From Cristatella mucedo (Eukaryota > Bryozoa > Phylactolaemata > Cristatellidae): 64,000 nt of DNA. The translations under genes were made by a program, and so were the position numbers. The stretch is from the NCBI GenBank assembly GCA_009760855.2, contig WPIO01000188.1:186001-250000 (forward strand). Direction: 5' to 3'. Positions 9,986-53,894 of this stretch are shown in pieces (the first letter of the stretch is position 1; the number at the start of each line of letters is the position of its first letter). Under the pieces are notes generated by a model. The model saw nothing but the letters and a program-made list of their open reading frames with translations, was not told the origin of the DNA and ran no database searches.

Positions 9986-10914
9986 CCAGCTGAAGTGCCA
10001 GGTGATGCTTAGAGTAGTGGTAGCGACTTCGAGATTGTCATAGAAACGAGCTTTTACAAGTAATAGTTAATAAACTACAGTACTAAATTAGACCAACGAA
10101 GTCAAAAGCTTAGGTTGACATGCTACTCTCGTCATGTTACCACGTAAATAGCCAGAGCTCTAGATCACTTCACCATAGATTTAATCTCTTTATGAGAGTT
10201 CAGCAAATGCATCACGTAATTTTAGATAAACACAAATTACGTTATAGTCAATACCTTGATATTTCCAATGACTTGTCACAATGCAAAGTTAGTTGACCGT
10301 CTAAAAGGATGGCCAAATAGGCCATCTATTTTTAGAAGGTCAACTAACAGGTGAACTTGCTAGCAGGATGTGAAAACATTAGTGGCTTCCCAGTGCTCAT
10401 TCCCATTGGGCAGACTCATTGACTACAACTGCCCTAGAATCTATTTCTGCTGCAACGGAAAGTATATATACCGTCAATATGTAATAAGTTTACTTAGCCT
10501 AGGTAGTGATGTGCTAGCTCTTTACGCAGTAGGTCCTTTGTTCAGGTCCTTCAGTAATCGATCTTTTATTGTCCACTGCAACCTGTGATGATAACAGTTC
10601 AACTTCGTCTACCAATATACAAAAGAGGCTGGCGATTCAGCTAACCTAAATATGTACATAAATCAACTCTAGTTTACGTTTATAACCGGCGTGAGAATCG
10701 AAAGAACTTGTATCCATGAGATTAGAGGCGATTGTTGCGTCCAGGAGATGGAAAATTGAACTTTTGTCGTCATAAGACTGTCAGGTAATAAGAATATAAA
10801 CAAATTTTTTTCCGGCATAAATATTTCGTCTCAACTCAAGTGTTAAATATATTCATAAACTTGTAGAAAAAAAATATGTATACTAGTTAACACCAATCGA
10901 CATATATGCAAACC
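9986..10914. other. Intergenic with one strong hairpin
   Basis: No protein gene could be supported. The hairpin at 10288-10348 is described separately. Confidence 0.5.
10288..10348. ncRNA. 61-nt near-perfect hairpin (pre-miRNA-like or foldback)
   Basis: GTTAGTTGACC at 10288-10298 pairs with GGTCAACTAAC at 10338-10348. Inside it TCTAAAA pairs with TTTTAGA, and GATGGCC pairs with GGCCATC, closing an AAATA loop. Only one mismatch and a small asymmetric bulge interrupt about 25 base pairs. The length and loop fit an animal pre-miRNA, but there is no direct evidence of transcription. A tiny foldback transposon remnant is the alternative. Strand is undetermined because either transcript would fold. 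Confidence 0.4.
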
Positions 10915-13525: not shown

Positions 13526-13540
13526 TTTTGTTCCCCTTAA

Positions 13541-13999: not shown

Positions 14000-14019
14000 T
14001 TATGAATAATAGTATTTAT

Positions 14020-14499: not shown

Positions 14500-15235
14500 T
14501 AGCTATTGATATCAAGTCTGAGTTGGTCAATGCATATGTGACATTTCGTCTTACTTACTGTAACTCACTGCTTAAGCTCTTACCAGTATGTACAATTAGG
14601 AGCTTAAAGCTGGTGCAAAATTGCACAGCTAGGCTTGTCCATCCTGAGCCTTACAGATGACACATTACGCCACTTCGCGCCTACTTTCATTGACAACCAG
14701 CCAAGCAACGGATCTATTTTAAGGTTTAGGCGCTAAAACTTAAATTTCTTAGTTATTTGGCTCCAGTATACTTATCAGACATACTCCTCCACCAGATCAA
14801 GCTTCGTACCACTTGCTTTTCGGAGTCTAAATTTTCACCTACACCTCGCACAAACCACAAATCATTTAGAAACAATGCATTCATTTCTTATGCTTCCGAA
14901 GCCTGGAACTCATCCACAAGACTCTCGTCACCACATCCCTGACTTGACCACCTTCCAAAAGAATAAAAAACTCACCTTTGTATGACATTCAGTGCCATTC
15001 AGCATTCAGTGTGTCCCTGAAATTCTTTCTTTTTGTGCGTATGTGCTGACACTGTTGAATTCTGCCACTACCCACACTTGCATGCTGACTCGGCGAATGT
15101 CACCTATAACCTTGTTATTTAGGTTGCCCATCAAGCATTATACCACTTACTATTACATAGTGATTCCTTAGCAGCAAATGTAAAACACCTATATGGAGAT
15201 TGTTTTCTATAAAAGAGCTTTATCAAGTGAGTGAT
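14500..15235 (+). mobile_element. Family A retrotransposon, 3' third
   Basis: Starts near the coding block for SRLDFCNSLL (cgtcttacttactgtaactc), passes through the HITPLLADLHWLPV-like block and the APVYLSDILLHQ segment (a 61-codon frame at 14757-14942), and ends with the 3' UTR and the degenerate stem-loop at about 15185-15225. Stops and frameshifts are present. Confidence 0.8.
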
Positions 15236-17454: not shown

Positions 17455-19012
17455 ATAATAATAATTATTATTATAATTCACTTGATAAAGCACCCTCAGA
17501 GAACTTACTCTTTCTCTTAAGGCGCTTTACATTTGCTGTAAAATGAAACGCAATTGAATGGTAAGTAAAATCATGCTTGAAAAACAAACCAAATTAATCA
17601 TATGGTTAGGGGTGACATGCACAGGGTCAGCATGCAAATGTGGTTAGTGGCAGCATGCACAGTGTCAGCACCCATAAGCACATCAAGGACGAATCACAGG
17701 GACCCACTATTTGCTGTCCTAGGTAGGTGTGTTTTTAGGTTCCTTTTAAATGTGGTCAGGTCAGGGGATGTTCTGACGCAGGTCGGGAAGGAGTTCCAGG
17801 CTTTGGGAGCATATGAACTAAATGCACGGTCCCCAAAGGATTTAAGGTTTGTACGAGGTATTTATAGACTTTTGGATTCCGAAAAGCGGGTGGTACGATG
17901 CTTGGCCTAAAGGGGTAGTATATCTGACAGATAGGCGGGAGCCATAGAATTAAGGGACCCAAAAGTGAGCGACGAAATCTTGAAGTCAATCCGTTGCTTG
18001 ACTGGTAGCCAGTGTAGGTCGGCGAGAAGTTGAGTAATGTGGCAGCTGCGACGCTCACGGCCGACGAGTCTAGCTGCCGAGTTTTGCTCCAGCTGCAATC
18101 GCCTGATCGCACATGCTGGTAGGCCAGTAAGCAGTGAGTTGCAGAAGTCGAGACGCGATGTCACGAATGCATGGACCAACTTGGATGTGGTATCTTTATC
18201 TAAACAAGCCCGAATTTTAGCAATGTTATGAAGCTGAAAATAGGCCGTTTTGACTGTGGAGCTGATATGGTCGTCTAACGAGAGGTCGCTTTGGAATTTG
18301 ACACCTAGATTTCGAGCTGATTCAACTGGAGATATGTTGGCAGAGCCAATTTTGAGAGTCAACCTGTCCAATCTCTCGATCACACTGGGTTGGCCCATAA
18401 CTAGTAAGTTAGTTTTGTCATCGTTTAGTTTTAGAAAATTTGCTGCCATCCATGTGCGGATGTCATCAATGCATGCAGCCAGTGAGTTTAGAGAATTCCT
18501 GGTGCTCGAAGGGTGGGAGGGATCAAAGCAAAGGTACAACTGAGTGTCATCCACATAGAAATGAAAGCCTAAATTGTGCTTGGCAATCATATCAGAAAGA
18601 GGGAGAGTATAAACCGTGACAAGAACCGGACCTAGCACGGAGCCCTGAGGTACTCCATATTTCTGAGGTACTTCAGATGACCTTTGTTCATTCACGTTAA
18701 TACTCTGGAGTCTCCCACTGAGCTATGACCTGAACCACTGCAGAGCAGTGCCAGTGATGCCCAGGCGAGATGAGAGGCGCTCTAGAAGAACTTTGTGATC
18801 GATGGTATCAAAAGCTGCCGAAAGATCAAGCAAAAAAAGCAGAGACACTCTACCCATGTCTGCATTCCTAAGTTGTTCGTTGCATACCCGAAGCAACGCT
18901 GACTCTGTGGAGTGATTTGCTCTAAAGCCAGACTGGAACTTACTAGCAAGGTGTGAGGTTTCGATTCACGAGTTCAGCTGGTCCGCCACGACCCGAAACA
19001 AACTGGTCCTGT
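17455..19012 (-). mobile_element. Family A CR1/L2-like retrotransposon, longest copy
   Basis: On the minus strand, from 5' to 3': the segment before RT (VVADQLNS near 18985), the RT fingers and palm (DLSAAFDTIDH near 18800; [19 protein letters not shown]), the thumb, the C-terminal conserved blocks, the 3' UTR, and the stem-loop with an ATT-type tail at about 17455-17540. There is no endonuclease domain, so it is 5'-truncated at about 19012. An in-frame stop near 18968, another upstream of 18695, and a break near 17907 inactivate it. This copy best shows the order of family A landmarks. Confidence 0.9.
17907..18695 (-). pseudogene. Family A reverse transcriptase fragment
   Basis: 262 codons encode the RT palm and C-terminal part of a CR1/L2-type ORF2. 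The PQGSVLGP motif (residues about 15-22) is followed by FYVDDTQLYL (about 46-55), where the usual A of YADD is V; the catalytic Asp pair is retained. Then come the NDDKTNLLV block and the conserved C-terminal region (SRLDFCNSLL, HITQLLADLHWLPV, APAYLSDILP). The protein would act in target-primed reverse transcription of its own RNA. The frame is closed on both sides by mutations, so this is a remnant. Confidence 0.9.
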
Positions 19013-19054
19013 GTTGACGTTTTGTTCCCAGGATCACCTGGTGCAAGTCTCTGC

Positions 19055-19188
19055 GGTTATCATGCGGGTTATGCTTCTAGGAAAAGCTGTGGAAACTTTT
19101 CAGAAAATCCTGGTGTACAAGCACGTATGCAAATGAGCTGCAAGCCATGTTTGAAGCAGAGCCATGCTGTTGGCCGATGTGGCAAGCG
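19055..19188 (+). pseudogene. Unidentified coding remnant, copy 1
   Basis: Matches 35669-35815 at protein level: both have a G-Y-x-A-G start and, after a gap, TYA-x-EL-x-A-x-FEAEP followed by C and MWQ. In this copy the first half lies in one frame and the TYANELQAMFEAEP half in another, so a frameshift separates them. A strong splice donor (GTAAGTGAG) follows immediately at 19189, and a pyrimidine-CAG precedes the second half near 19103. It abuts the 5' end of the family A copy at 17455-19012. I do not recognise the family; it may be part of another mobile element or an old gene duplicate. Confidence 0.35.
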
Positions 19189-19192
19189 GTAA

Positions 19193-20454
19193 GTGAGTAT
19201 GTATTTGAACTTTCTTTGCCTCCACTTCCTGCATCCATGGTATCTTAACCCCTGGTCGAAGCAGTTAAAAGCACTGAAAAACATCAGTGTCATTATAAAG
19301 ATTCCTACGTATTTCATATTTTTTTCCTCTGTTATCGTTGATTATATGGCCATGAACCCTAACCAACCTTTCGGATTCACTAAATACCTGACTGCAGCCT
19401 CTGCTTAAGCCAGGTACCATTAATCGGTTTTGGTTCCACCCATCAGCATCCTACTGATCCGACCTGTATACGGCTCCTTAGTCCTCTTTCACTACTTGAT
19501 ATGAAGCTCAACGATTTTTCTCTCGCTCTATCATACAGTTCATTGAAATTTGTTTACGCTAATGAACCACTCACTTCGTATCCATTGTAGATTGGACATC
19601 AATTTATGCTAGTTTTAGCATACGCTTTGACCTTGGTCACTTTAATCTCAGCCAATCACATCGTTTCTGATATATTTTCTCTGCCTCTTAATAATCTGGG
19701 GTATTTTTTAAATATGCTGTACCTACTTACCTGTGCTAGCTGGGCTGCCCCTAGAACAGTTCTACCCGGTGGATACGGGCGTCTAGCTGTAGGCAATTGC
19801 ACCAATGTCTTCTTATGATGTTTTAAACCTTCATCGCGGTTACGGAATCGTAGTACCATACTTGTGTCTCTACGTAAATTATTCACTTCAGCCAGAGTGG
19901 TGTAATACGTCTTCTATACACTTCGCAATTAGTTGGATTTCTCACTAATAGAAGTTCCTTCATAATATTATTGTATGAAGGAATCGTAAAACTATGGTCA
20001 AAGTTTCCCTAGCTGTACTTCTTGCATGTGTAGCTCCCTGGGAGATTTTTTGGAAACTACACAAAAAGCCTATTGCATATTCAGGTAGCTCTAGCTTTAC
20101 TAACAGCATACACATCTTGAAGATTCAGACTTCTTTCGGGCAGAATTAACTGTAATTCTGATCTGAATCTTCTAGTCATTCGGTTTCAAGAAGTGCATTA
20201 GCTGGTCCTCATTCGCGAATGTGCACAATTACGAGATGTTGTATTAAATAGTCCTAATAATGAGTCTCGATTGAGGCTGTGAGAGTTAAGTTATAACTTA
20301 CTCGCATCTGGTTTCATGTTTAGATAACATTTAACTAGAAAGTTTGGTGTGTAAAGTAGACTGGAAGGCCTGTTCCTGACAGATAGGATTTATTATTATT
20401 ATTGTCTATTAAGCAGGCTACTACAAGCCAGTCAATCGTGCTTTCTTTATAAAA
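19193..20454. other. Intergenic, nothing firm
   Basis: A 70-codon frame at 19606-19818 starts with a hydrophobic, signal-like stretch, but it has no TATA box, no donor and no recognisable body. Otherwise empty. Confidence 0.45.
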
Positions 20455-20515
20455 AAATTAAATACCGAGAAAGAGATTGAGTTTTCTGAGGGCACTCTAT
20501 AAAGTGTGTTATATA
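20455..20515 (+). mobile_element. Solitary family A tail
   Basis: taccgagaaagagattgagt followed by tctgagggcact, then an AT-rich end: the family A 3' stem-loop with nothing else. Confidence 0.65.
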
Positions 20516-20964
20516 TAATACTATTGTAAGGCACGGCAGTTTACTATGTTTTCCCGAAAATGGAGAGGGTGGACTTGCAAAAGAGTTGCAACCCAAAGGC
20601 AGAGAACTGCTTTAACACAATCTTTTTTTTCAAATTGTATCCCGGAATAATGAAACAGGTATGACTATTATTAGCAGTACCTTAGTACAAGCCTTTTTTT
20701 AAACTGTGCGTTTTGATTAAATAGTCTAGCAAATATTAGATGAGATCAGATTCAATATTCTGTACCTGTTACGGTTGCCAAGTAAACAACAAGCTATAGT
20801 TTTTGCTTTCGGCATTAGACTCTTTGAGGCTACATAAAACCAATCGACACAGTTAGTCTTGGAATATAATATAATACCTCCCATTCATCAGTTCAGCTAC
20901 TACTATGTAGAGTTTAATTACGTTCGGCAGTCACTTATTTCCTATTTTTAGTTTTTTTAAATAA

Positions 20965-21260
20965 TATTCATGCACTTGATAAAGCATCCCCGGATAACTC
21001 AAGCTCTTTCTAGGTGCTTTACATTTGCTGCAAATGGAAGCGCGATTGAATGATGAGCAATATCGTGCTTTAATTAATAATAATATTAATAAGAATGCAC
21101 TTGATAAACTGCACTAGGAGAACTCAATCTCTTTCTCGGCGCTTTACATTTGCTGTAAAGGGAAATGCAATTAAATGGTGAGTAATATCATGCTTGATAA
21201 ACAGACAACATAAACATGAATAACATGGTTAGGGGTGACATGCACAGGGTCAGCTTGCAA
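20965..21260 (-). mobile_element. Two tandem family A 3' ends
   Basis: Two successive copies of the reverse-complement stem-loop: 20965-21055 and, after an (AAT)n run, about 21092-21258. The second also keeps the 3' UTR (ggttaggggtgacatgcaca). Both are 5'-truncated to the 3' end and lie in the same orientation. Confidence 0.8.
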
Positions 21261-24200
21261 TTATTTTATTATTACTTGACAAAAAGTTGTTTACTTGAGA
21301 GAATATATTTCCTTAGAAACCATCAATTAACACAGTTATTTGAGCTCAAATCTAATATAAAATAACTTGATAATTTAAACTTAGCCCAATTTAATAAAAG
21401 AAAAACTAAAATGACAACTTACGATGGTTGGAAAATGGGTACATTTTGTATATATTGCAAAATTATTGCCGACAAGGTTATCGATCTATAGGCATTTCCT
21501 TTTATTTTTAAATTTACTTTAGTTGTTGACAATGCCCAAAAGACGTGACAAAAATAATATATGGCAATGATTCCATGAGTCCGATCTAATATTCGAATTT
21601 AGATGCAAATTAAGGATGACGAGGATGTTTAGCCATGTATTGATTACCTGATGAGGCGTACCCTGACAACTGGAATATTTTTGTTAATGTGAAAGGTGTT
21701 TAGTCAGTGTTACTCATAAGTAGATTATTGAATATTTTTGGCCACTATAGGACATAGAAAATGAAATCACATCAGGCCCAATGGCGAGCTCATCTGCCTA
21801 GCCCCAGCGGCCGATGCATGTGTCCTTTGTCCTTTGACAAAAGTAAAATCCTGAGTGAGCTATGCTATCGCCATGAGGGGTGAAACGTGATTGGTATTCC
21901 ATAAATTGTCATTAGCTTGTGTCGTTGACCTATTGATGTCGTGTTTTATTCAGCAGGCCATAGCCCGCATTAGTCACGACAGCATTGCAGCTCTGCCACT
22001 TTGAGTATGAGGTAGGCTGGCAGATTGCCAGCTAATAATTATGGTCGAACTAACAGAAGGCAGGTCAATTCGGCTTCATGATTTGGGTACTAATGCAAAA
22101 ATATTATTAAGTTGCAGTAATTGACTTGTTAATTAGATACTTACGAGAGCCACATTTTAAATAAGTAAGTCAGCATCAGGTGCGTCGGTTATGGTTAGTT
22201 CATACTGATATCTCGGCCGCGGCTGGCTGTAGCAAATCAAACTCTAACCACGACATACGTTTTAGCTTGTATAAAACTGAAAACTAAATAGTGAGCAGAG
22301 TTCAATGGGCAAATTTTAGTCTACCTCACAAGAATCCCGAGCTCCGGCTGAAGCATCGTTGGACAAAGATGCCAAGTGTTAGCAGATTGACTGACCATAG
22401 TAAGTCTTGGTAGTACTGCAAATAATAGTAAAAAATCTTATGTGATGGGATGTGTAACAAATATGGCAGCAATCAGACTGCATGTAGACAGTGGTAGTGG
22501 TATCATTTAGTGACTATTTTATGTTGGAGGTAATTCCACCTTTTGAACCATCTACTTTGTTAATTCGGAAAGCGTGCAAATCATCAGCTCATTTGCTGGA
22601 ACGCTTGTACATTAATAAAATAATTAAATGAATATTGATTATTCACTCCGCCACTATAGAAGTGAGTAAGGGAATTCTGATATGACCGAATGGCAGCCTT
22701 AGCACAGCACATTCAGGCAAAGATGGAAGAGAAAAACTCTTTTGTCTGCCAACCGATGACAGGTGTAGTTTTTTGAGAATCTACCCTCGAAAAGGATTAA
22801 CCACGCAGCTGGAACGCAACTGTGGAACTAGCGGTTGGTAAAATGTCACCTTTTAGATGGAGAGAATGTGAGGCTTAGATTAGCTGCTGTTCTCTATTGG
22901 AAACTGTGTCGGCAGTAGCCGTTTCCGTTTTCGATCGTACACCTATGTGTCCTGTGTGTCCTACCACCGGAGAAACTATAAAAATACCTAAAAATTCCAT
23001 GTATTCTCATTCGGAACAATGTTATTATTAATCCTAAAACTTTCCATCTAATGTAATGCCCCAATCCATCTGGAAATCCATATATAATTAAAGGGTGTAG
23101 TTTTTTAAATGAATAGAGTGAGCCACCTAATGTAGGAGATTGGCACTTTTAACTTCCGTAAAGCTGCATGACTATGGTGTTCCACGGTTAATCACGGCAG
23201 CATGAGTGCTTTTGAATCAAGTTAAAAACGATTCCCGTAGCCTCAATGGCAATAAAACAGTATTTCCCGAGTACGTCTTACCCCACCAAACGCTAAAACA
23301 GTTTCATTAAACTAGCCCAGATCTGATTCAATTTTACTTTGATATAACAATTTATTCAAATTAAGCATAAATACCAGAAGGTCTGCATAGTAATCTGTAA
23401 GACAAAGATGTGAAACCTTGATCGGCATTTCTTGTAAAGCTAATTTTGTCTGGTATCTCATTCCTTCGTCAAATTAGAATATGCAAACCAAAACGACCCT
23501 CACTGTTTAGCTGGTACCTCTCTAGATACGATGTCTGACTATTCTCAGCAGGCGTGTGAGCTAAGATCTCAGGGCAGTGTTTTACTTGTGCAATTTATGA
23601 AGTCACACTTGAATCACTGATTTTAGGATACAGCATGCACGCTAAACTTGAGGATTGTTGTCATGCGGAATCAGCAATTCCTCAAGCAACACATCGATCA
23701 TGCCAAAGATGTTGGCAAGCTTAAATCACGAGCCTTATCTTCGCACTTAACTAGTATTAAAATTCATGAAAACCATAAATTAAATACTTGTTTAACGTAA
23801 ATCGTCATAGCCTGATACCAAATTGTATCAACAGATATTCCCACAACCTTCTAATGTTTCATAGCTTTTCTCGTAATTATGATTCGGATCGTGGAAGTAT
23901 TTTTCTTTTTAAACAAATACGCCCTAGTATGCCCTGTGGCCATGATTTCTTTAAAGACCATTAAACTGACTATTTTTATTGTAATATTTTTTAGTTATTA
24001 AGCAGACCATTTTTTATAATGGGTCTGCTATTCTCGAGCACTCAGATTACTGCAAGTAAATCTAACGGAGTAACTCTGAAGAGTCTCACTTCGTGAGACT
24101 GCTACCTAAAGTGTCGCATTAGGCACCAGTACGTCGCTCTGGAATTATTTGAAAATCTTGCTCGTATTAAGCAATTACAGATGCAAGTAATGAGACACGG

Positions 24201-26335
24201 CTAGCTATAAAAAATACTTACCACTTCAATGAGCCTTTCAGAGGAAGCCAAGACTTTGAAAAATCATTAGGCTAGCCATATCTTTCTAAGTTTTTCAAAA
24301 TTTTATATATGTTTTTGACATAATAGGTAAGGGACCAAGAAAACAATTAGCACATAAGGTAAGAGTGAAATCATTTGTCTTTTGCAATGACTTTAAAAGT
24401 AATTCCAGTCGTTCTGGGCATAGATTTTTTAAATTGCAAAGTGAAACTGCCAATATTATATTAATTTTGTCACATTTACAATTGCAGTGATGAACCGATG
24501 ATTCAATTATCATAGAATAATTAGAATTGCCTTGGTGAATCAGCTGAACCTGGATATTGATGGCCGACATCATGAAATTCACAGGTAGAAATGTGGCTAT
24601 TCCGTTTTGTCAATTCATCGAAATGTTTATTTTGGCCATCAGCTATCATTGCAATCACAGTTACCTCAGTACCTTAAATAACGATCCCCCTGTTGATCAA
24701 GCAGATTACCGTTCACCACATTCACCAAATGCAGATTCACCCATCCAGATATATCAGATAAGGGAATTAACTCATCTTGTAACATTTCCTTTGGCCTGCT
24801 TTGCTGAATTAGTATTCTTCAAGGATACTGATCCCTTAGTTTCTTGAATCGTCGCACTGTAGTCATTCTAACCCGCCGCTTGTAAATTAATATTTAAGTG
24901 TTGTTCCCACTCTAAAAGGCTCTAGTCAATAGTCACAGCATTTACCTACTAAGATTCTTCTAATACCCAAGCCCCCCCACGTTACATAACGGCTAAATAA
25001 CTATTGCACTTACACTGTTCTAACTTACACTGCTCTATGTACGTCCGTCAAACTTTGAAAACTGCCTATGAGATTCAATAACGACGTTAGGTAGCATTTT
25101 GTTGAAGAGTTTAGAGTAAAGAACGCCTCATAATCAGACAGTTTTCACAAATAACAACCTTCAACTCATTGTATTTGTTATAGACGTTTGCTCTCATTGC
25201 CTATGAGTGATGATCAAGCCAATAGACGAATGGTGCACTGATTATTTGTGACGAACAGGCACTTGATTTGGGTTATTTTTCAGAAACATTAGCCTATACC
25301 TGTTTCACCAAGCCACTGAACATAGTCAGATCTACGACCGATCCTTTAGTGAGCTATTTTATCGAGCCTGTACAACATAATAAGCAGCAGCATAATAAAG
25401 CAACAGTTTGCTAATCGGACAAATAATTAAAATATTGGCTACAAATAAAATAAATTAATTAAACAAGAAGAATTGTGTGCACGCTTTTAATAATTTTTTG
25501 TTCCAGAGAATCCAAGATTTTCATTTTTCACTTCAAGTTTCGTAGAATCAGTTTGCAGCCGAGTCCATGAGTAGGCTTTGTGCTACAGACCAACCTGAAA
25601 TTGGACACAATAAACTCATTGTCAGATGAGATATTTCATGAAAATTTGATCGGCTCTTTGTCAAAAGGACATGGCATTTATTGCTAGCAGGCACAGTAAG
25701 AGCTTTCTGTCATTTACTTAGTTAAACTGTTGCACTTTGCCGCATATAAATTTCACTAAAATCCAGTTAATGTATTTGAATATCAATCGGATGGATTATA
25801 CCGCGACCCAATTTAAGGGTTGACGGTTTGCAGTAAGCGTTACTTTGCTCTTTCTTAGCAGCTCTGGTAAAACCAGTTGATGCTTTTCTGCCATCAATGT
25901 TTTGTGACTGGTTGGTCAAATAACATCCAATTGAAAACACGTGAGCTGGGCCGTGAATGTTTCTATGCAGTTTGGACTACATTAGCTAATTTTGACTAGT
26001 GACAGTGCCTCTCTTTCTTACAGTATGTCACACTGTAGTTGCAGCTCATTCAGAGGTTCTGAGAATACTTGATATAATTAAAGTAGCGGGATTGATTCTT
26101 GCTAAACGACATTGCTACTTTTGAATTGTCATAGCCCAAAGAAATTGTGATTAAGATATGACTAAGTACAAAAGTTTCAGCTGTTGTCCTATATCCTTCC
26201 CCATTTTACTTAAAAGAACTGGTTCATAATCAGATCGACTACTTAAAAGAATGAGCCAATAATATTGTGTACTATTTTATCGTCTTCTATTATTAGCATG
26301 TATTGTACAGTGTGAACGAATGAATTGATCATACC
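21261..26335. other. 5 kb without recognisable gene or repeat
   Basis: AT-rich unique DNA. Two small hairpins lie close together (24001-24029 and 24082-24100). Frames at 24295-24582 (-) and 24557-24847 (+) have no recognisable domain or signal. Noncoding regions downstream of the peptide gene may lie at the right edge. Confidence 0.5.
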
Positions 26336-26839
26336 TTATTTACCATTGATGACAAACTTTTGGTAGCAGCATGACCAGATTGTTGGGCAGCTGAAAGCGC
26401 GAGTCCATCCACTTGGGAAATGACACTTGTTAAATAGCTTGTGCTTGCATTGGCCTCCAACGGATTCGCAACTTGCTCTACCTGCATCCCAAAAGTTAGA
26501 AAATAAACCTCGATATATACTAAAAAAAATAGATCTTACTTAGTAGAACTCTGAAAATGTGTTATTACATCGTTCTGAAAATGTAAAGCATTTCCATGGA
26601 GAATAGAACAAAACAAGCTGCATTTTTCTGGCAAAGATGCAGTCAGACTGATAAGGTAACTTACGCTTCTCCATTCCTTGGCCAACTTCTTCGCTGGAGG
26701 TCTGAAACTCTTCACCTGCGAGGTTTGGGTTATCGCTCAAGAATTCATTATCATCAGTTTCGACATTGGTCTGCTCCCCAGCTAGAGCTGCTGGAGAAGC
26801 CAAAACCAGGAAAACGCACACAAACCACACTTTATTCAT
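26336..26839 (-). CDS. Secreted cysteine-rich, beta-defensin-like peptide precursor (two exons)
   Basis: Exon 1 is 26665-26839. It starts at ATG 26839 and encodes a hydrophobic signal peptide of about 20 residues (likely cleaved after ALA), then a propiece with 11 acidic and no basic residues before a Lys-Arg. The Arg codon is split by a phase-1 intron, 26482-26664 (183 nt), with donor GTAAGT, branch-like TTCTAAC and acceptor GCAG. Exon 2, 26336-26481, encodes a cationic peptide of 47 residues with six cysteines spaced C-x6-C-x7-C-x11-C-x5-CC, ending Gly-Lys-stop. Beta-defensins and the crotamine-type fold share the C-x6-C start and C-x5/6-CC end, so a three-disulfide defensin-like fold is likely. 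The plan (signal, acidic propiece, dibasic site, cationic knot) fits a secreted antimicrobial or venom-type peptide processed by a furin/PC protease. Which of these it is cannot be told. The Gly-Lys end suggests amidation. The exon join is inferred; the paralogue at 52141-53894 supports it. Confidence 0.75.
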
Positions 26840-26886
26840 TCTGCTATGACCCACAGAAAGTGTATGGCTGGCCGTGCGGCTGCTGC

Positions 26887-26893
26887 TTTTATA
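26887..26893 (-). promoter_or_regulatory. TATA box of the cysteine-rich peptide gene
   Basis: TATAAAA on the minus strand, whose first T lies 54 nt before the ATG at 26839. Transcription would begin about 30 nt downstream, giving a leader of roughly 20-25 nt. The paralogous locus has TATAAATA 50 nt before its ATG. A family A element begins 88 bp upstream of this box. Confidence 0.65.
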
Positions 26894-26980
26894 TTGATCT
26901 AATGATAGCACAGTCAAAGCCCAAGCTAACTATAGAGTTCTCGTCAAGTACCAGCATAGCTGGCTACTTCCTCGAAGTTA

Positions 26981-27650
26981 CTGGCCTACCAGCATGTGCG
27001 ATCAGGCGATTGCAGCTGGTGCAAAACTCTGCAGCTAGGCTTGTCTGTCATGAGCGTCGCAGTTGCCACATTACTCCACTTCTCGCCGACCTGCACTGGT
27101 TACCAGTCAAGCAACGGATTGACTTCAAGGTTTTGTCGCTCACTTTTCGGTCTCTTCATTCTATGGCTCCAGCCTATCTTTCAGATATACTACCCCATCA
27201 GGCAAATCATCGTACCACTCGCTTTTCGGAATCCAACAGTCTAGAAATACCTCGTACAAACCTTAAATCCTTTGGAGACCGTGCATTTAGCTCGTATGCT
27301 CCCACAGCCTGGAACTCCCTCCCGACCTGCATCAGAACATCCCCTGACCTGACCACATTTAAAAGAAACTTAAAAACATACCTATTTAGGACAGCATTTA
27401 GTTGGTCCTTGTGATTCGTCCTCGATGTGCTTATGCGTGCTGACACTGTTCATGCTGCCACTAACCACATTTGCATGCTGACCCAGTGCATGTAACCCCT
27501 AACCATTTTATTCATTTCGTTTGTTTTTCAAGCATGATTTTACTTACTATTCAATTGCATTTCACTTTGCAGCAAATGTAAAGCGCCTAGAAAGAGATTA
27601 AGTTCTCTGAGGGCGCTTTATCAAGTGCAATATTATTATTATTATTATAA
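26981..27650 (+). mobile_element. Family A retrotransposon, well-preserved 3' end
   Basis: Begins at ctggcctaccagcatgtgcg and keeps one open frame to 27414 with the ORF2 C-terminal blocks ([68 protein letters not shown]), followed by the 3' UTR, the stem-loop (27582-27622) and (ATT)n. It is one of the youngest-looking copies. It is head-to-head with the peptide gene and starts 88 bp from that gene's TATA box, so it could supply or disrupt upstream regulatory sequence. Confidence 0.9.
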
Positions 27651-28764
27651 AGTAGCATGTCTCCTTGTGGCTACTGACTCACACAGTCCATGAAAGGTGC
27701 AAGACTTAGCATGGAGCCCATGTCAAATGAATGTCTTGGCAGCATCTACTTGGCTATAGTCAGTTAGATTGAATGAATGACAAAATTGAATAACTGATAC
27801 AATTACCAGTGAGCCTCTCATCGTTTGACCGGATGGTTTTAATTGTTTGGAAACCTTTATGGGACAGAAATTACCAATTTTACTAGCAATCAGATGACTT
27901 CAATTCATTCTTAGCATGTGACTCGTGATCTTCGTCATAGTTAACACATGTCAATATTATTAGAACGAACACATATATAGCTTGTAGCTGGATATTAGCA
28001 ATTAAATCTAAAAATAAACACGCTTGGGATAAAACCATATAAGAGACTCTAAATTCATGAATTCAAACAACAATGCGAAGAATCATCAGGGTAGTACGAT
28101 TTAGGGGGTTTTCATTTTGTAAAACCTGTTGTACAAGTTAGTGTAGTATTTAGTTTTTCGAAAAGCGATATAATAGGTCATACTAAACTTGTGTTTGTGC
28201 AAAACTAAATTACAATATTAACGTGAAGCATCGATTGGCCTCATAAGCCAAAAGCAAATGCATGACTTGTGCGAACATCTCCCCTCACAGTTTCTTTCGG
28301 GTTCACGGGACTAGTGATGCTATCACTTTGCTTTTGTTTACTGAACAATTTGTAAGAATTTCGTGAAGTACAAGCCTGAGCACCAAAATTCTGGTCGGCT
28401 TTGGAAAAAATTGGAGGGCGACCGCATTCGGTCGTTTAAGACCCGCCCCTACTACTTCTTCAGGCACCATATGAGACTATGTTGACGATTTTTTTCGGGT
28501 GACGGTGTTGTGACATCTTCATTCCAGGTCGCTCGCTGTAAATTGTTAGTGCGATCTGTCGAGTCATATGTTTGTGCTTACTCCGAAACATGTATACACA
28601 ATTTATTCGCAAGTGCCTATGTGCATGTGCAGGTAAGTAAGCAAGCAGGATTAATGGACTCGGTGATAATTTGGATGATCAAATTGGCCATCAAACTACG
28701 TTAACCAGCATGAACAAATGTTAACAACATGAACAAATGTATATATGTGTGTTGTTTTTTGTAT
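27651..28764. other. Intergenic, nothing recognised
   Basis: No supportable gene, RNA or repeat. Confidence 0.5.
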
Positions 28765-29060
28765 TTTGTATAGAACCCTCAGAGAACTTAAGCTGTTTCC
28801 ATCCACTTTAAGTATGCTGTACCGGAATCGTGACAGAATGGTGTGCAGTATCATGTTCAAGGAAAATAAGCACAGTAATGTTAGATCTGGGATGCACTGG
28901 ATCAACGGCCAAATATGGCAGTCTTGGATTGCACAGTATCAGCATGTATCACTCCAAAAAGGTGACTAACAAGAACCCACTCAAAGCTGATATAAACAGG
29001 TGTGTTTTTAGCTGCTGGTAAACGTGGTCAGCTCAGGAGATAACATATTAGTTGAGAGTC
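28765..29060 (-). mobile_element. Family A 3' end, degenerate
   Basis: agaaccctcagagaacttaa is the reverse-complement stem-loop. The end of the coding region reappears at aaacaggtgtgtttttagct and gtggtcagctcaggag. The 3' UTR between them is heavily mutated. Frames across it are shadows. Confidence 0.6.
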
Positions 29061-29689
29061 ACTGCTATGCTTTGTGATTGTTAAGTATTTAATAGCAATT
29101 TCTGGGAGCACTTTAAGGGGATAAAGTTTTAAATATTTCACTTCTGAAACTTCAATTGTCATTATTGCTAACCAGGCCTACGGCTTTCTTAAGACAATAA
29201 ACTAGCCATAACGACAAATTAAGCCGTTGAAAAGCATATAAACGATCAGGACTGATAAGAAGATGGATAGCCGTTTTTGAGGCAATTATTTTACGGCTGG
29301 TTTCTAAAATCGGGAACATCTAGTCATTAAGCATTTGTGTTATGAGAAAATCACATGAAAGGCATTTCACCAATGAAATCCAAGACACAACAGCTGACCT
29401 TTTTAGAAAACATTCCCGTTAAATGATTGGAAAGTTTTATATTTCAGTATTCGGTGTGCCAAACCATTAGTACGACTAAAATTCTTCCGTGGAAATGAAG
29501 TCAAACTAGTTTTAAACCAACGAAAAATACGTTATTGTTGAATGGTTACCTCATACTAATAAAGAACAACAAAAGTTTATTTTATTTGGAATTTAAGTTT
29601 GGCGGCAAATGCTCATTTGCATGTCACTGCTACACACAAACTGCTCCAGCTAACATACCTACTACTAACGATGTAGCTTCCAAACAGAA

Positions 29690-29762
29690 AATGTACACTA
29701 CCTAGATAGAGATTGAGTTCTCTGAGGGCGCTTTTCTCAAGCGTTTTATTATTATTATTACT
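29690..29762 (+). mobile_element. Solitary family A tail with (ATT)n
   Basis: ctagatagagattgagttct, then ctgagggcgcttttctcaag, then (ATT)n: the 3' stem-loop and tail only. Confidence 0.7.
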
Positions 29763-29924
29763 ACGTTAGACTTACGGAAAGAAAGTATGCAGAGGTTCAA
29801 CTATTCTTACCAAAGTGCTGTGGATTCTGCGAACAGGTACAATGATGTCCAGGTGTTTAAATAACTTTTTTTTAACCAAATTTTTGTATCACAGCTGCCG
29901 GTAACTGCACAAAGACATAAAGGG

Positions 29925-30175
29925 CGAATCGCCCTCTATTCCGCCGTACCAGGCAACTAATCAGAAGAGCTCCCCCAAAGATGATGGCATGGCAATTACT
30001 CAACGTAAAATTTTACGAAAACTCGCCTTTAGTTCATATTCTCACAGCCTTGAACTCATTATGGAATGACATGAAGGCATCCATGGACTTCGCCCCACAT
30101 ATAAAGACGATTTAAACTTACACGTTTCTACATTGTGCCCTGCATCCATTTAATAATTTGTGGTGTACCTATTCT
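29925..30175 (+). mobile_element. Old CR1/L2-like C-terminal relic
   Basis: cgcctttagttcatattctc and cacagccttgaactcattat correspond to the FSSYAPKAWNSLP block, followed by a remnant of the FKxxLKTYL block. Frame broken; no tail. Confidence 0.45.
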
Positions 30176-31484
30176 TTTTAATGCGTATTTTAGTATTCAA
30201 CATATTTTCATACACTACAGCTTACATTAAAGACTTTGAAATAGATTTGCTTCGTCTACCAAGAATAGAATGAAGGCCTTTTTTAACAAAATTGTTATTG
30301 AGCTATCGCCAATTAGGGTGCATACAAGACCTAATGGTACAGCCATGAAAGTTGTGAGGATAAGCCATACAGAAAATAATTCTATTTCATTATCAGCACT
30401 AATTTTTCCCTACAAGTTATAAACGGTTAAAACTTACAAGACAGTTATGTGCACTTTAAATCACTCTTGCTGCAACTCATCATAACTGCATTTCCATTAG
30501 AGTATCCGGTCACCCAGCCTCAGAGTCGAATAGCGAGTTCTTCTTCTGTCTAGACGGCTCGAAAAGCGAGCATAATTCGCCACACTCATGAGAATAGTGA
30601 TAAACAGCTGGATATTCCTATTTATAATCAGTTTCATTGCTTAGTATGACTTAATCAACTAAATTACCATAGTGACAAGTCATACAGTGGTTTCCATCAT
30701 TAAAGTGCTTATGCAAATCCGTGGCAGCCGCCGATAAAATTCGGACTCAATTTACTGAGAAATCCTTTATGTGCTTATTGAAATTATTAGCATACAGTCG
30801 ATGATTTAAGCTGTATGCCTATCATCTGAAGTAAGCATATTGAAAAAAGTATCGAACGCTTTGCCGAGCAACCTTCATTAGCATACAGTGAGAATTCATT
30901 ACGCAAGCATACGAATATAAAAGTAGTTAGTAACACAAGCCTTTTCAGAATAGAATGGGTGAACTGAACATCTTTACTGTGTGGTGGGCACAGATTTTTC
31001 CGCATTAAAACAGTCTCAATGGCTCTGGTTTACCTCAGATAAACGGGCTTTCCTATAACGATAAGCTTCGTAATCTCAATCCCTATTGTACATGTAAAGT
31101 GCATTGAATGAGATTTGTCTTTTTATGGGGTGACATAAATAAATTTTACCTATGAATCCATGAAATAGCCGACGTGAATGTGGGAATGGTAAGCCAATCT
31201 AGTGAAAAACAATTAAAGAAGAAGCGACCATAAGTTGTTTAAGATGTTGCAGGACATACGCTGCATTAACCAATTTTATGGTTTGGCTTTTGGGTTTTAG
31301 ACTGTAGCGGTGTTAGCCACTTACAAAGAAAAACTATTTTCATAGTGTTACGTGCTCCATAAAAACATCTTTTTTCCTATTCACACTTATCTAAAGATTA
31401 AAAAACTGCTATCGACGTGAAACCATCTACTTTTAAAATTAGTAGTGTTATTTTGGCAATCACCAGATGAGCTGTTTGCTATGT
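30176..31484. other. Intergenic, nothing recognised
   Basis: No supportable gene or repeat. Confidence 0.5.
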
Positions 31485-32135
31485 GCTGAAGTCTAACGAT
31501 TGCAGCTGGTGCAAAACTCTGCAGCTAGGCTTGTCTGTCGTGAGCGTCACAGTTGCCACATTACTTCACTTCTCTCCTATATGCACTGGCTACCAGTCAA
31601 GCAACGGATTGACTTCAAGGTTTTGTCGCTTACTTTTAGGTCCCTTCATTCTATGGCTTCAGCCTATCTCTCCGACATACTCCCCCATCAGGCCAAGCAT
31701 TTTACCACCCGCTTTTCGGAATCCAACAGTCTAGAAATACCTCGTACAAAGCTTAAATTCTTTGGAGACCGTGCATTTAGTTCGTATGCTCCCAAAGCCT
31801 GGAACTCCCTCCCGACCTGCGTCAGTACATCTACTGACCTTACCACATTTAAAAGGAACTTAAAAAACACCTATTTAGGACAGCATTTAGTGGGTCCCTG
31901 CGATTCGTCCTTCACGTGCTCATGCGTGCTAACACTGAGCATGCTGCCACTAACCACATTCACATGCTGACCCTGTGCATGTCACCCCTAACCATGGTAT
32001 TCATTTTGTTTGTTTTTCAAGCATGATTTTACTTACCATTCAATTGCATTTCCCTTTGCAGCAAATTTAAAGTACCTAGACAGAGATTAAGTTCTCTGAG
32101 GGTGCTTTATCAAGTGCATTCTTATTATTATTGTC
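31485..32135 (+). mobile_element. Family A retrotransposon, well-preserved 3' end
   Basis: Open frame 31500-31970 with the ORF2 C-terminal blocks ([16 protein letters not shown] in the consensus; LHWLPVKQRIDFKVL; YLSDILPHQAKH; AWNSLPTCV), then the 3' UTR, the stem-loop at about 32068-32115 and (TTA)n. An indel shifts the very end of the frame. The 5' truncation point is within 20 bp of that of the copy at 26981. Confidence 0.9.
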
Positions 32136-32149
32136 TACTTGGCTTGTAT

Positions 32150-32705
32150 GGCTTGTGCTCTAAAGGCGTGCATTGCTAGCTTACATAAGTCAAGACGACT
32201 TGGAACGTTCGGGTGGACCAATTTGTATTTCGACTCTTTGGCTAATTGAGATGTCCTGGAAGAGTCAACTTTTGGAGTAACGATTTTCAATATATAATCA
32301 GTGTTGGTTTCAACGTAGCAAGCAAGTTGATGGTATCATTTTTTGATTTGAGAAGGTCTGGTGCCATCGGTATGCAGATGTTAGCGATACTTGCAGCAAA
32401 TGATTAGATGGAATGTAAGGAGCTGGATGGCTGGAGGAATCGCAGCAAATCTGCAGTTGTGTTCCATCTGCATTGATGTGACCACCTAGACTGTGCTTGG
32501 CGATCATTTCTGCACTAAGGAATTCAAGAATTTGAACATAAGTGGACTAAGCACTGAGCCTCATTGTACCGTATACTTTAAATGGGCCTCAAATGATCTT
32601 CGCTGCCTCACAACAATACTTTCTAGTTTCCCACGACAATACCTCAGCCATTGCAGTGCAGCTGCAGTGATCCTCTTTCAAACTGTAGGCGCCCTAGAAA
32701 TACCT
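32150..32705 (-). mobile_element. Family A RT-region relic
   Basis: On the minus strand, the YADD region appears as MIAKHSLGGHINADGTQLQ (32510 downwards), where F-Y-A-D-D is changed to I-N-A-D-G. The flanking RT blocks are recognisable from 32150 to about 32705. It is truncated at both ends and inactive. Confidence 0.65.
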
Positions 32706-32779
32706 AATATAAATTAGCATTTAATAATTGAAGCCTCTTAAATATCAAGCCAGACGAGCTGATTGGCTTCACCTATATA

Positions 32780-32916
<137 letters not shown>

Positions 32917-33084
32917 CACCTAGCTCTTTCTTGCTATGATGATAGTCGATATACACTCCATGATATACAATCTCTTTAAAGGGTTTGGCTTTAAAAGTTG
33001 ACACAAACTTACAGGCTAGGTTTATAGGTACACAATTGCTATGTCTTGATATTCCTTTGTTTAAATAAGGATATCAAAGCTAAG

Positions 33085-33795
33085 TTGGGCATTGCACTTT
33101 TGACATCCCGTCTTGACTTCAGTAACTCAGCGCTTGCACGCCTACATGCATGTGCAGTCACGGGCTACGGCTGGTGCCAAACTCTGCAGCTAGCCTGGTG
33201 AGCTTCGCAGTTGCCACATCATATCACTTCTAGCCGACTTGCACTGGATACCAGTCAAGCAACGAATCGACTTCAAGATTTTGTCGCTCACTTTGAGGTG
33301 ACTTTATTGCTTTGCTTCAGCCTATCTCTAAAATGTACTCGCCCACCCGGCCCAGTATCGTACCACCCACTTTTCGGAATCCAACAGTTTACTAATACTT
33401 TTTGCTAACCTCAAATCCTTTTGAGGCAATGCATTTAGCTCGTACTCTCACAAAACCTGAAAACTACTCCCAATTTGCGTCACGACTTTCCCTGAGTTTG
33501 CCAAATTAAAAAAGAAATTAAATTAAAAACACAACTATTCAGGAAAGTATTTAGTTTTTTCCTTTGATTTTTCTTGTATATGCTTATGCGTGCTGACACT
33601 GTGCAAGCTGCCACTAACCGCACTTGCATGCTGACCCTGTGCATGTCAACCCTAACCATGTTATCCATGTCGTTCATCAAGCATGATATTACTCACCATT
33701 CAATGGCGTTTCCCTTGCAGCAAATGTAAAGTGCCTTGAAACAAATTGAGTTATCTGAGGGAGCTTTATAAGTTGCGTTTTTATTATCACTATAA
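33085..33795 (+). mobile_element. Family A retrotransposon, 3' third
   Basis: Starts at the block for TSRLDFSNSALA (acatcccgtcttgacttcag), continues through the LHWIPVKQRIDFKIL and WNSLP regions with several frameshifts, and ends with the 3' UTR (catgctgaccctgtgcatgt in consensus form), the stem-loop at about 33725-33775 and an ATT-type tail. Confidence 0.8.
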
Positions 33796-35589
33796 TTGTG
33801 ATGAGGGTTTAGCTGTTTGGGAGTCAGTTTTTTCTTCTTGACACGAGTTGTAAACTGTAGGTAGAACGGACTGTTTACGATTTTTCTTTTAGTGCGGTTT
33901 TATTTATGAAATACCAAGCTGCAGCCTTTTAGACAAGTTTTGAGATAAGAACTGAGGCTCTGAACATACTTATTACGTCAGGTCTGCTTGGCTGAAGGCG
34001 ACCTGGGTCAAAGTAGTATGAGCATAGGAATAAGGAGCAGTGGGTTAGCCATCTTGCTTGAATATAGAATGGCTTTTGTTATGATGTCGCTCTTTCAACC
34101 CTTGAATTCAAACGTTAAGATGCGGTAGGAATTGAGAAAGATAAAGATGAAGAATTAGAAAGAGACAGCGACGATATATGTGAGGGTATCGTAAAGGTTG
34201 TTAGTTCAGTATGGATGCTGCTATGTAAGTGATTGTTTGAGCGATCTACATAGAAACTTCACTATATTACAGAGGATCACTCGGCTAGATAGTCTCTTGA
34301 TTAGTGGGCTGGCCTTTTTATGGAGACAGTAAGCTTCCATTTGGAGCCGTCGGTTGAGCGATCAGCTGCAAGCAGGCTTTTCAAGAAAACTCCGAAATGC
34401 CACGCTCACTGCATGAATGAGGGTATCCAGGCTTTCGGCTTACTATGATTGTAGATAAAGAAAACCTGCATTGCATTCAGATTTCGAATATCTGTCTAAG
34501 TCATTTCTTTTAATGTTATGTCGCTAGACATACTCGACGTTACCTTGTACATAAAACGAAGCAGGAACAGCAAGCGAGACCGAACCACAACACCAGAGGA
34601 TCAGACTGCTCAAAACAACGTCAATGGGGTAGACATCTCAGTCACTTCAGCCATCACGAGACCTAGGATATATCCACCGATGTGAGTGGTAGCAATAAGT
34701 TAGTAGACCAAACCAAAGTTCAACAGACATTCATGAAATGAGCCAACATTGGTGCAGCTAGAGTTTTCAAAGCTAATATTGAAGCCTCTTGCAATCAGTA
34801 ACGGATGTCTCACACACATATTTTTGTGAGGAGCTCTGACCACTCCATTATAAATCATTTTAGACAGGCAGAAGAATGTTGGTATATCACAAACGTTAGA
34901 GGCACTGTCTCTGACGAGGACCTGACTGCAACTGATTCAAACGGTGGCCCATTCAAAATATTTCATATCTTGATGCCAAAAAGATTCACGAACAACAATT
35001 GCATCCCACCACAAACTTGGCAGAATACATCGCCTGAAACAATGAGATCCAGGGTGGTTGAGCTCAGATATACAGATACGTGAGCAGGGTAGTGATCTAT
35101 GTTTCGGTAGGCAGACATGCATCTAGCTTCTCTTGGACAGCCTGATCGCAGATAAGTAACTAGCCGTTTAGGGGGCCGGCGTTTAGCTGGTGGAATTTAA
35201 GAGGCTGTCAAGCAACTCATTGATGCCAATTTAGTGGCTTTTATTCAATTCAGCATGTATCCAGACCTTTATAAGTAGCTCCTTCGAATTTCAAAAGGAC
35301 CTTGGTACTGTGTTGCCGGTCGACGTTTCACAAGATACAAAGGCACGACGGCTGAGCTGTTTCAGCAATGAGGGTTAATTAGAGCTTCGGACTTATCGGT
35401 CCTAGGTTTGATAGCCGAGCTATTGAAGGGGTGAAGCAGGATGTGGTTGATTTTTATTCGTCCTTTTTATTACGAGCCAGTCGAAGGATTAATTTATTGC
35501 ATGGTGGGAATTTGGAAGTGTCGAAAGAGTTTGTGTACGTATATAGCCAGCAAAACACGTATGCAGATGTTATCTTAGGGAATTGACAG
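33796..35589. other. Intergenic, nothing firm
   Basis: No gene supported. A 92-codon plus-strand frame at 34805-35083 has no domain that I recognise. The ggatcactcggct at 34274 resembles the 5.8S rRNA start only by chance. Confidence 0.45.
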
Positions 35590-52140: not shown

Positions 52141-53894
52141 ATGGGTTTGGCGGCGTTCTTGTGCATTGTCGGTTTCTTGATTGTGACTACCGCCATTGCA
52201 GCAAACAAAGCTGAAGTAAAAGCTGAAGCGGCAATGGCACAAGCCAACGACGAATTTACAGTCGATTATCAATAAAACGAGGAAGAAGAAAACCATCTAG
52301 ATAAAAGTAAGCCTAAGCATCGAGTAACCGATGCAAACTTTCAGTTCAACTCATGAGGAGCAGTTTTTTAGGGTTTTTGCTTGCAAGTGCTACCTCGGAC
52401 CACATGTGAGCATGGTCGTTGCGAAACGTCTTGCACGACGTTGAGGATATGCTAACGAAAACTTGGAAAGTGTCATGCCGCACATCGAGTACATTTTTAG
52501 GCGGAAGTATCCTGACCACTTCGGATATGAACTTCAATATCATATAACATCTTATCAGCCCAAACTGTAGCGGCTAATGCTCCGAAATGTTCACGCTTCT
52601 AAATCGTCTTCAATTTAGAGTAATGGCAAGACATTTCTGCTTGGATACAGGCAAAATGCTTCAACTTGCCGTACTACCTTGAGCCTGTCCAAATACAATA
52701 ACGCCTGCTCAAGCGATAAAAATTGGGATGCCAGCTAGAAAGCTAAACTGTGATCAAACTTCACAGCCTGTTTAAATTTTCAAGTTAATCAATCCTGCTG
52801 CTAAAACAATTTACGCTACAACAATTTGTCAAGAAAATATTTTAAATAATTATCGCACAACAAATTAGCCTACACGTTTAAAGAAACCAAGTAGCTCAAA
52901 TAGTATTGCTGTTAAAAAACAGCATCGCTGTTACACCAAGCGTCAAGCTCCTTGATTTAAAGCACCACCTGAAGATTTGAAAATCACCGTCAGCGAACGG
53001 TAAAAATTAACGTCAGTTTAAAAAAAAACGTTTTCTAAGTTAATATATCGTGTTGCATTTCACATTCGAGTAAACGAGCATCGTTAGACCTGATTTTAGA
53101 CAGAGATTAAAATGTTTTCTGGTAATGAATTCGTTCGTGGTTTTGAAGCTTGCATCGTTTGTAAAGTTCATGAATAAATAGAAAGATAGTAGGTCACTTA
53201 ATCCGTCAATCCTCATGCCCCAGGGCTCAAAACCTTAATCATTTATATTAAAGGCTAACATGTCTAAATTTAATTTAATTTTTTACTATCCGAATTAATT
53301 GTATGATGTACTTAGATGTGCAAATGTTTGCAAGAAAAATGTATGAAGACGAGCTGCTTAATAATTAACCCATTCATTGACTCCCACTTTATGGGGAAAC
53401 AAAGAAGCACCAACTATTCCCTGGCGTTGACCGGTTGACATTAGCAACTAGCATAGAACGTGCTTCTGTGGAAATGACAGTGAAACCTGCCTTCAGCGAT
53501 AACATTTTGCAGTTAACAGTTAAATGGCTATCGCCATGACATAGCAGAAACTAGAATGCAAAACCCGACAAATTATTCAGTTCTCGTAACGATTACTGTT
53601 GTCGCTTTAGGGAATTTCATACTCTGGAAATTGAAGCGACCGAAATGCAAATCCATTGGTAGTACCTGCAAGGCCAATTTTTTCCGGCGATGCAGATCCC
53701 CGTATTACCGATCGAAAAAGTATGCTTTAGGCCCGGCTTTCCAGTCATGCTGCATTCTACGTTTGCCTGTTGGCCCAGGAATCGTGTGGCCAAGGGTTTC
53801 AAATGAAACCGTGCCTTCTAATAGTACAGGAAAATATAATACTACGAAACACTTCCTGGCACTACTATCTTTATTAAAAATTCAGAACACCTAA
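52141..53894 (+). pseudogene. Decaying paralogue of the cysteine-rich peptide gene
   Basis: Exon 1 starts at ATG 52141 with a 20-residue hydrophobic signal peptide ending in A-I-A, then a propiece. A TAA at 52273-52275 (codon 45) interrupts it, but the same frame continues with a run of glutamates and reaches Asp-Lys and a phase-1 donor, A|GTAAGC, at 52306/52307, which is the same position and phase as in the intact gene. The acceptor TTTAG at 53610 opens exon 2 in the matching phase. That exon has KR just before the first cysteine and C-x6-C-x7-C, then CC; the fourth cysteine position is Gly (GGC at 53730), with one extra residue before it. No stop follows the CC pair for 46 codons. Intron of about 1.3 kb. 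The nonsense codon, lost cysteine and run-on end together indicate a pseudogene or a strongly altered member. The pairing of the two exons is inferred. Confidence 0.6.

What the first reader, a model, noticed from the sequence alone, without database searches (positions are those of the whole stretch)
26336..26893. Intact-looking gene for a secreted six-cysteine, beta-defensin-like peptide hidden across two exons
Seen in the sequence: TATAAAA, a signal peptide, a propiece with 11 acidic residues, a Lys-Arg whose Arg codon is split by a phase-1 GTAAGT...GCAG intron, and an exon with cysteines spaced C-x6-C-x7-C-x11-C-x5-CC and net positive charge. Known: beta-defensins and crotamine-type peptides have nearly the same spacing, and acidic propieces with dibasic sites are common in antimicrobial and venom peptide precursors. 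Inferred: a three-disulfide secreted effector. The second cysteine loop (x7) is longer than in vertebrate beta-defensins, so it may be a new family.
Basis: partly seen in the sequence, partly recalled or inferred. Interest (0 to 1): 0.85.

Follow-up and report, generated by a model that had tools for sequence, protein, structure and literature searches.

The report
Defensin-like peptide gene with relatives
An apparently intact two-exon gene, probably from an animal, encodes a small secreted peptide that looks like a distant cousin of beta-defensins, with two related sequence stretches nearby, one of them decayed; it is plausibly an unrecorded germ-killing peptide, but neither its host nor its activity is known.

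Summary
On the minus strand, 26893-26336 holds a TATA box, a signal-peptide exon with an acidic propiece, a 183-bp GTAAGT...GCAG phase-1 intron, and an exon with C-x6-C-x7-C-x11-C-x5-CC. The exact pattern occurs in none of 200 Markov windows. So this looks like a small, diverged, partly decayed gene family.

Best reading: an invertebrate beta-defensin-like secreted defence peptide. Spacing, a Gly-Gly-x-Cys motif, intron position and amidation signal fit. The second loop (7) lies outside the published beta-defensin motif (3-5). Pfam, PDB and homologue searches found no relative, and structure predictions failed (pLDDT 46 and 55). Membership is not established. The host, probably an animal, is unidentified. 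Function, disulfide pairing and expression are inferred. New variant of a known kind; more interesting if the host lies outside groups known to have such defensins.

The parts
26887..26893 (-). TATA box (TATAAAA), its first base 54 bases upstream of the ATG
26665..26839 (-). Exon 1: signal peptide (about residues 1-20, ..SPAALA/GEQ), propiece with 11 acidic residues, Lys and first base of a split Arg codon
   Evidence: cleavage site by eye, no signal-peptide program available
26482..26664 (-). Phase-1 spliceosomal intron, 183 bp, GTAAGT..GCAG, branch-point-like CTAAC near the 3' end, T-rich
26336..26481 (-). Exon 2: rest of Arg, Arg, then mature peptide with C-x6-C-x7-C-x11-C-x5-CC and C-terminal Gly-Lys-stop (probable amidation signal)
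53556..53894 (+). Open reading frame (112 aa) whose segment from 53637 resembles exon 2 (C-x6-C-x7-C....CC, five cysteines, fourth missing) after a Lys-Arg; coding status unknown
   Evidence: score 73; 0 of 3000 cysteine-fixed shuffles. The tblastn did not list it
10388..10468 (+). Relic resembling the second half of exon 2 (C-x11-C-x5-CC); broken: stop codon upstream in frame, first two cysteines absent from that frame
   Evidence: score 66; 0 of 3000; tblastn E 5e-5, window alone as database

Best explanation
This is a working-looking gene for a beta-defensin-like secreted peptide, probably of an animal. Shown in the sequence: signal-type N-terminus, acidic propiece, Lys-Arg-Arg, a phase-1 intron just before the cysteine domain, six cysteines spaced 6-7-11-5-0, cationic domain, Gly-Lys at the end. 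Inferred: (1) the precursor enters the secretory pathway; (2) the acidic propiece masks the cationic domain; (3) a furin-type protease cuts after Lys-Arg-Arg; (4) the terminal Lys is trimmed and Gly is turned into an amide, leaving about 44 residues; (5) three disulfides form in the beta-defensin order C1-C5, C2-C4, C3-C6; (6) the positively charged peptide binds and disrupts microbial membranes as a host-defence effector. Two related stretches within 43 kb, one decayed and one lacking a cysteine, suggest old gene duplication and loss, as reported for big defensins in bivalves (PMC7203481 passages).
For: Gene anatomy. Pattern not expected by chance. Relatives in the window. Between exon 2 and the 53637 segment, differences by codon position are 10, 5, 11 over 19 codons, fewest at position 2, consistent with past coding in this frame. 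Panusin, a lobster beta-defensin-like peptide, has spacing 6-4-9-5-0, Gly-Gly-x-Cys at C2 and an amidated C-terminus (PMC10301333 passages). Its alignment to exon 2 scores 51, reached by 151 of 3000 and 137 of 3000 cysteine-fixed shuffles; panusin against turtle beta-defensin 1 does no better (427 of 3000). Beta-defensin and big defensin genes share a phase I intron at the 5' end of the cysteine region (PMC7203481 passages).
Against: No Pfam match at E up to 10, no meaningful PDB sequence match, and no candidate among 5.8 billion proteins sharing three 5-residue words with exon 2. Second loop of 7 is outside the published beta-defensin motif. AlphaFold2 pLDDT 46 and 55, with no usable fold match. 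Exon 2 against turtle beta-defensin 1 is not distinguishable from cysteine-fixed shuffles (387 of 3000). The relic's codon-position differences (10, 13, 12 over 27 codons) show no protein constraint. No expression data. A phase-1 intron before a secreted cysteine domain also occurs in other secreted peptide genes (recalled). The alternative frame of exon 2 is open too, though the matching frame of exon 1 holds no ATG.
Confidence: 0.55

Rival explanations
1. The peptide has the same general scaffold but acts as a venom or deterrent peptide on ion channels rather than on microbes. Processing is the same; the target differs.
For: Crotamine, as printed in PMC4078517 (passages), has spacing 6-6-11-5-0, the closest of those compared. 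The beta-defensin fold recurs in sea anemone toxin families (PMC10210398 passage; PMC11509556 passages).
Against: Sea anemone beta-defensin-type peptides in PMC11509556 carry a CXC-C-C-CC pattern, absent here. No relative was found by sequence. The host is unknown and nothing shows a venom tissue.
Confidence: 0.17
2. The peptide is a cysteine-rich, amidated hormone or growth-regulating signal, cut at Lys-Arg-Arg and amidated at Gly-Lys.
For: Tribasic site and Gly-Lys-stop; such processing is typical of peptide hormones (recalled).
Against: The cysteine pattern with a final CC and Gly-Gly-x-Cys fits defensins better. The two relatives are divergent and one is broken, unlike a conserved hormone.
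Confidence: 0.1
3. An unexpressed gene: a decaying copy that still reads open, or a dead locus with retrotransposon pieces next to its promoter.
For: The stretch at 10388 is broken and that at 53637 lacks a cysteine. A LINE fragment starts at 26978, 85 bases upstream of the TATA box. One search returned no relative at all, transcript-derived or other.
Against: Both exons are open, splice sites are canonical, the split codon keeps the frame, and all six cysteines are intact.
Confidence: 0.13

Closest known systems
Panusin (spiny lobster beta-defensin-like peptide)
   Same: Six cysteines ending in CC, Gly-Gly-x-Cys at C2, loop of 5 before CC, Pro after the fourth cysteine, cationic, amidated C-terminus
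   Different: Loops 6-4-9-5 against 6-7-11-5; similarity beyond cysteines weak (151 and 137 of 3000 shuffles reach it)
Vertebrate beta-defensins
   Same: Loops 1, 3 and 4 inside the published motif C-X4-8-C-X3-5-C-X9-13-C-X4-7-CC; phase I intron before the cysteine region
   Different: Loop 2 is 7 rather than 3-5; 38-residue acidic propiece with Lys-Arg-Arg; no Pfam match
Big defensins
   Same: Signal, prodomain with dibasic site, phase I intron before the beta-defensin-like domain (PMC7203481 passages)
   Different: No hydrophobic N-terminal domain: exon 1 after the signal is acidic
Crotamine and crotamine-like peptides
   Same: Spacing 6-6-11-5-CC against 6-7-11-5-CC; Gly-Gly-x-Cys (printed in PMC4078517)
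   Different: No sequence match in any search here; host not identified
Sea anemone beta-defensin-fold toxins
   Same: Three disulfides, CC near the end
   Different: They carry CXC-C-C-CC; here the first loop is six residues

Membership tests
Beta-defensin (published vertebrate motif) | C-X4-8-C-X3-5-C-X9-13-C-X4-7-CC | tested here: not met
   Loops 6, 7, 11, 5: second loop too long
Beta-defensin (published vertebrate motif) | Pairing C1-C5, C2-C4, C3-C6 on a three-stranded sheet | tested here: inconclusive
   AlphaFold2 mean pLDDT 46 and 55; no usable PDB fold match
Trans-defensin superfamily (big defensin, beta-defensin) | Phase I intron at the 5' end of the cysteine-rich region | tested here: met
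   Intron 26664-26482 after base 1 of the codon four before C1; criterion from PMC7203481 passages; not specific to this superfamily (recalled)
Trans-defensin superfamily (big defensin, beta-defensin) | Detectable sequence homology to known members | tested here: inconclusive
   Pfam none at E up to 10, PDB none meaningful; panusin alignment reached by 151 and 137 of 3000 cysteine-fixed shuffles, turtle beta-defensin 1 by 387 of 3000
Big defensin | Hydrophobic globular N-terminal domain before the beta-defensin-like domain | tested here: not met
   Exon 1 encodes signal plus a 38-residue acidic propiece only
Invertebrate (CS-alpha-beta) defensin | C-X5-16-C-X3-C-X9-10-C-X4-7-C-X1-C | tested here: not met
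   Ends in CC, not CxC; no x3 loop
Sea anemone beta-defensin-type toxins | CXC-C-C-CC cysteine pattern | tested here: not met
   First loop is six residues
Any antimicrobial peptide family | Kills or inhibits microbes | not testable with these tools
   No assay possible

The most novel reading that the evidence does not exclude
The host belongs to an animal lineage in which trans-defensins were unreported (the 2020 review PMC7203481 names Porifera, Cnidaria and Ctenophora, and finds no big defensins in Ambulacraria or tunicates). The gene would then be a true trans-defensin with the shared phase I intron and a longer second loop, moving the origin of beta-defensin-like immunity earlier or adding an independent invention. 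For Cnidaria this depends on definition, since others class sea anemone toxins as beta-defensins by fold (PMC11509556 passages).
Probability: 0.12. Interest if true: 0.75.

Novelty: new variant of a known kind. Interest (0 to 1): 0.45.

Why it matters
Where beta-defensin-like peptides began, and how often they were invented, is open: the review whose passages I saw calls it a key unanswered question whether big defensins, vertebrate beta-defensins and panusins are related or convergent, while leaning to a shared origin for the first two (PMC7203481). An intact gene with the same intron position, an unusual second loop and diverged copies nearby is a concrete test case, and could be a new antimicrobial scaffold. 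It matters far more once the host is known.

Tried and rejected
Sequence family searches of the exons: Pfam none for exon 1 or exon 2 or for the two related stretches; PDB phmmer and profile none meaningful; protein search with exon 2 inside its 67-residue reading frame, no candidate; viral and prokaryote contigs, none confirmed.

Host identification: among the best 120 rows listed by each search (of 228 hits and 5721), the rows that name an organism are fish at 43-53% identity, plus two records labelled as bacteria (Thiolapillus sp., a Plesiomonas shigelloides MAG). The closest rows are unnamed: 70% in an ENA contig and 87% over 65% of the query in a JGI contig. A scan for the latter in prokaryote and viral contigs found nothing. 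Host left open.

Flanking genes: six-frame Pfam scans of about 45 of 64 kb (1-15002 at E up to 0.05; 19001-34002 and 49001-64000 at E up to 0.1) gave one match, a reverse-transcriptase domain below its curated cut-off. The other 19 kb were not scanned in six frames. No tRNA, no Rfam match at gathering scores.

Exon-1 remnants or DNA similarity near 10388 and 53637: best DNA scores no higher than shuffles. Rejected: a chance cysteine cluster; the alternative open frame of exon 2 as the real product (no ATG in the matching exon-1 frame).

Structure: both AlphaFold2 jobs low confidence; fold searches of the two models gave 0 and 5 matches, best E 4.1.

Full report
What is there. On the minus strand, a TATAAAA at 26893 is followed 54 bases later by an ATG (26839). 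Exon 1 (26839-26665) encodes MNKVWFVCVFLVLASPAALA, a typical signal sequence by eye, then a 38-residue propiece with 11 acidic residues and one lysine. The donor GTAAGT follows the first base of an Arg codon. The intron is 183 bp, T-rich, GC 0.32, with a CTAAC shortly before GATGCAG. Exon 2 (26481-26336) completes Arg, adds a second Arg, then reads ASCESVGGQCKHKLFNKCHFPSGWTRAFSCPTIWSCCYQKFVINGK and stops. The site is thus Lys-Arg-Arg, and Gly-Lys-stop is a probable amidation signal.

Is it chance? The exact cysteine pattern appears once in six frames and in 0 of 200 first-order Markov windows. A loose beta-defensin-like pattern appears 5 times in those 200 windows (0.025 per window), so in a large scan the cysteines alone would not suffice. 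A signal-like exon ending in Lys/Arg at a phase-1 GTRAG donor appears once in the window and in 0 of 40 Markov windows; those criteria were set after seeing the gene. The two halves meet in frame, 183 bp apart.

Relatives in the window. A Smith-Waterman scan of exon 2 over six frames found two further stretches: 53637(+), score 73, and 10388(+), score 66; the best in each of 15 Markov windows was 40-50. With cysteines held fixed, 0 of 3000 shuffles reach either score. A tblastn within the window lists the 10388 stretch (E 5e-5) but not the 53637 one. The 53637 stretch lies in an open frame (53556-53894) with a hydrophobic start, Lys-Arg, then C-x6-C-x7-C and a final CC. It lacks the fourth cysteine and has a long tail; whether it is a gene is unknown. 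The 10388 stretch keeps C-x11-C-x5-CC but has a stop upstream in frame and lacks the first two cysteines in that frame: a relic. The two do not match each other (1905 of 3000 shuffles reach their score); they mostly keep different halves. DNA similarity between the three loci is not detectable above background, so the duplications would be old. Codon-position differences from exon 2 are 10, 5, 11 over 19 codons for 53637, fewest at position 2, and 10, 13, 12 over 27 codons for the relic. The first fits past protein constraint; the second shows none.

Comparison with known families. The published beta-defensin motif is C-X4-8-C-X3-5-C-X9-13-C-X4-7-CC (PMC515299, passages). Here loops 1, 3 and 4 fit and loop 2 (7) does not. 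Panusin has 6-4-9-5 with an amidated end (PMC10301333, passages). Crotamine as printed has 6-6-11-5 (PMC4078517, passages). Panusin, crotamine and turtle beta-defensin 1 each have Gly-Gly-x-Cys at the second cysteine, as here. Panusin against exon 2 scores 51, reached by 151 of 3000 and 137 of 3000 cysteine-fixed shuffles. Panusin against the relic: 48 of 3000; against the 53637 stretch: 233 of 3000. Turtle beta-defensin 1 against exon 2: 387 of 3000. Panusin against turtle beta-defensin 1, two accepted beta-defensin-type peptides: 427 of 3000. The test is therefore too weak to prove or exclude membership. Beta-defensin and big defensin genes share a phase I intron at the 5' end of the cysteine region (PMC7203481, passages); this gene has one there. 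That feature is not exclusive to the family (recalled). Big defensin is excluded by the missing hydrophobic domain, CS-alpha-beta defensin by the ending, and the sea anemone defensin-fold pattern by the missing CXC (PMC11509556, passages).

Searches that found nothing: Pfam, PDB by sequence (no meaningful match), a 5.8-billion-protein collection with exon 2, and viral and prokaryote contigs. The protein collection does hold animal proteins, so its silence suggests that no near relative is there; the three-word rule makes it blind to diverged short peptides. Exon 1 was not searched there. AlphaFold2 gave pLDDT 46 with three sequences and 55 alone; fold searches gave 0 matches and 5 poor ones. 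Structure remains open.

Host. The window is rich in LINE fragments of an animal type, and six-frame Pfam scans of about 45 of 64 kb found no conserved gene, only a weak reverse-transcriptase match. That the host is an animal is inferred from the LINEs and the spliceosomal intron. The retroelement matches that name an organism in the two lists of 120 are fish at 43-53% identity and two records labelled bacterial; the closest, at 70% and 87%, are unnamed contigs. The host could not be named, and the own-genome search was unreachable six times. A LINE fragment begins at 26978, 85 bases upstream of the TATA box; its best copies in the window are 91% identical.

Mechanism. Most likely: secretion, masking by the acidic propiece, cleavage after Lys-Arg-Arg, C-terminal amidation, three disulfides in the beta-defensin order, and membrane attack on microbes. 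Only the encoded features are shown; every processing and activity step is inference. Rivals are an ion-channel peptide on the same scaffold, an amidated hormone, or a locus that is not expressed.

Novelty. A new variant of a known kind. The 2020 review states that no trans-defensin had been described in early-branching phyla such as Porifera, Cnidaria and Ctenophora, and that big defensins are apparently absent from Ambulacraria and tunicates (PMC7203481, passages). Against a simple reading of that, other papers describe sea anemone toxins with a beta-defensin fold (PMC10210398 passage; PMC11509556 passages). Eight paper searches were made; touched on early-branching animals, and apart from those anemone toxins I saw no such report in their listings or in the passages seen, but the library is partial and no paper was read whole. 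Interest depends on the host.

Changes made on checking this report: the identity range and labels of named retroelement matches, the LINE position (now measured), the tblastn miss of the 53637 stretch, two more panusin controls, and the anemone-toxin caveat.

Noticed in passing
53556-53894 (+): 112-residue open frame with a hydrophobic start, Lys-Arg, a five-cysteine defensin-like segment and a 46-residue tail; no Pfam match. It could be a diverged family member with its own role.
   Followed up: partly
10340-10480 (+): Decayed relic of the family; a stretch resembling the first cysteine region lies just upstream in another frame.
   Followed up: partly
26978-27600 (+): LINE fragment that begins 85 bases upstream of the TATA box and may have changed the gene's regulation; copies in the window up to 91% identical.
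   Followed up: partly
42528-44084 (+), 44772-45928 (-), 48763-49584 (-): A second LINE family; the closest outside copy is 87% identical over 65% of the query in an unnamed JGI contig, so DNA of this host or a relative may be present in that sample.
   Followed up: partly
32774-32913: (TA)70 repeat.
   Followed up: no
58864-59369: Long CTCTGTCT-type tandem array, open in several frames.
   Followed up: no
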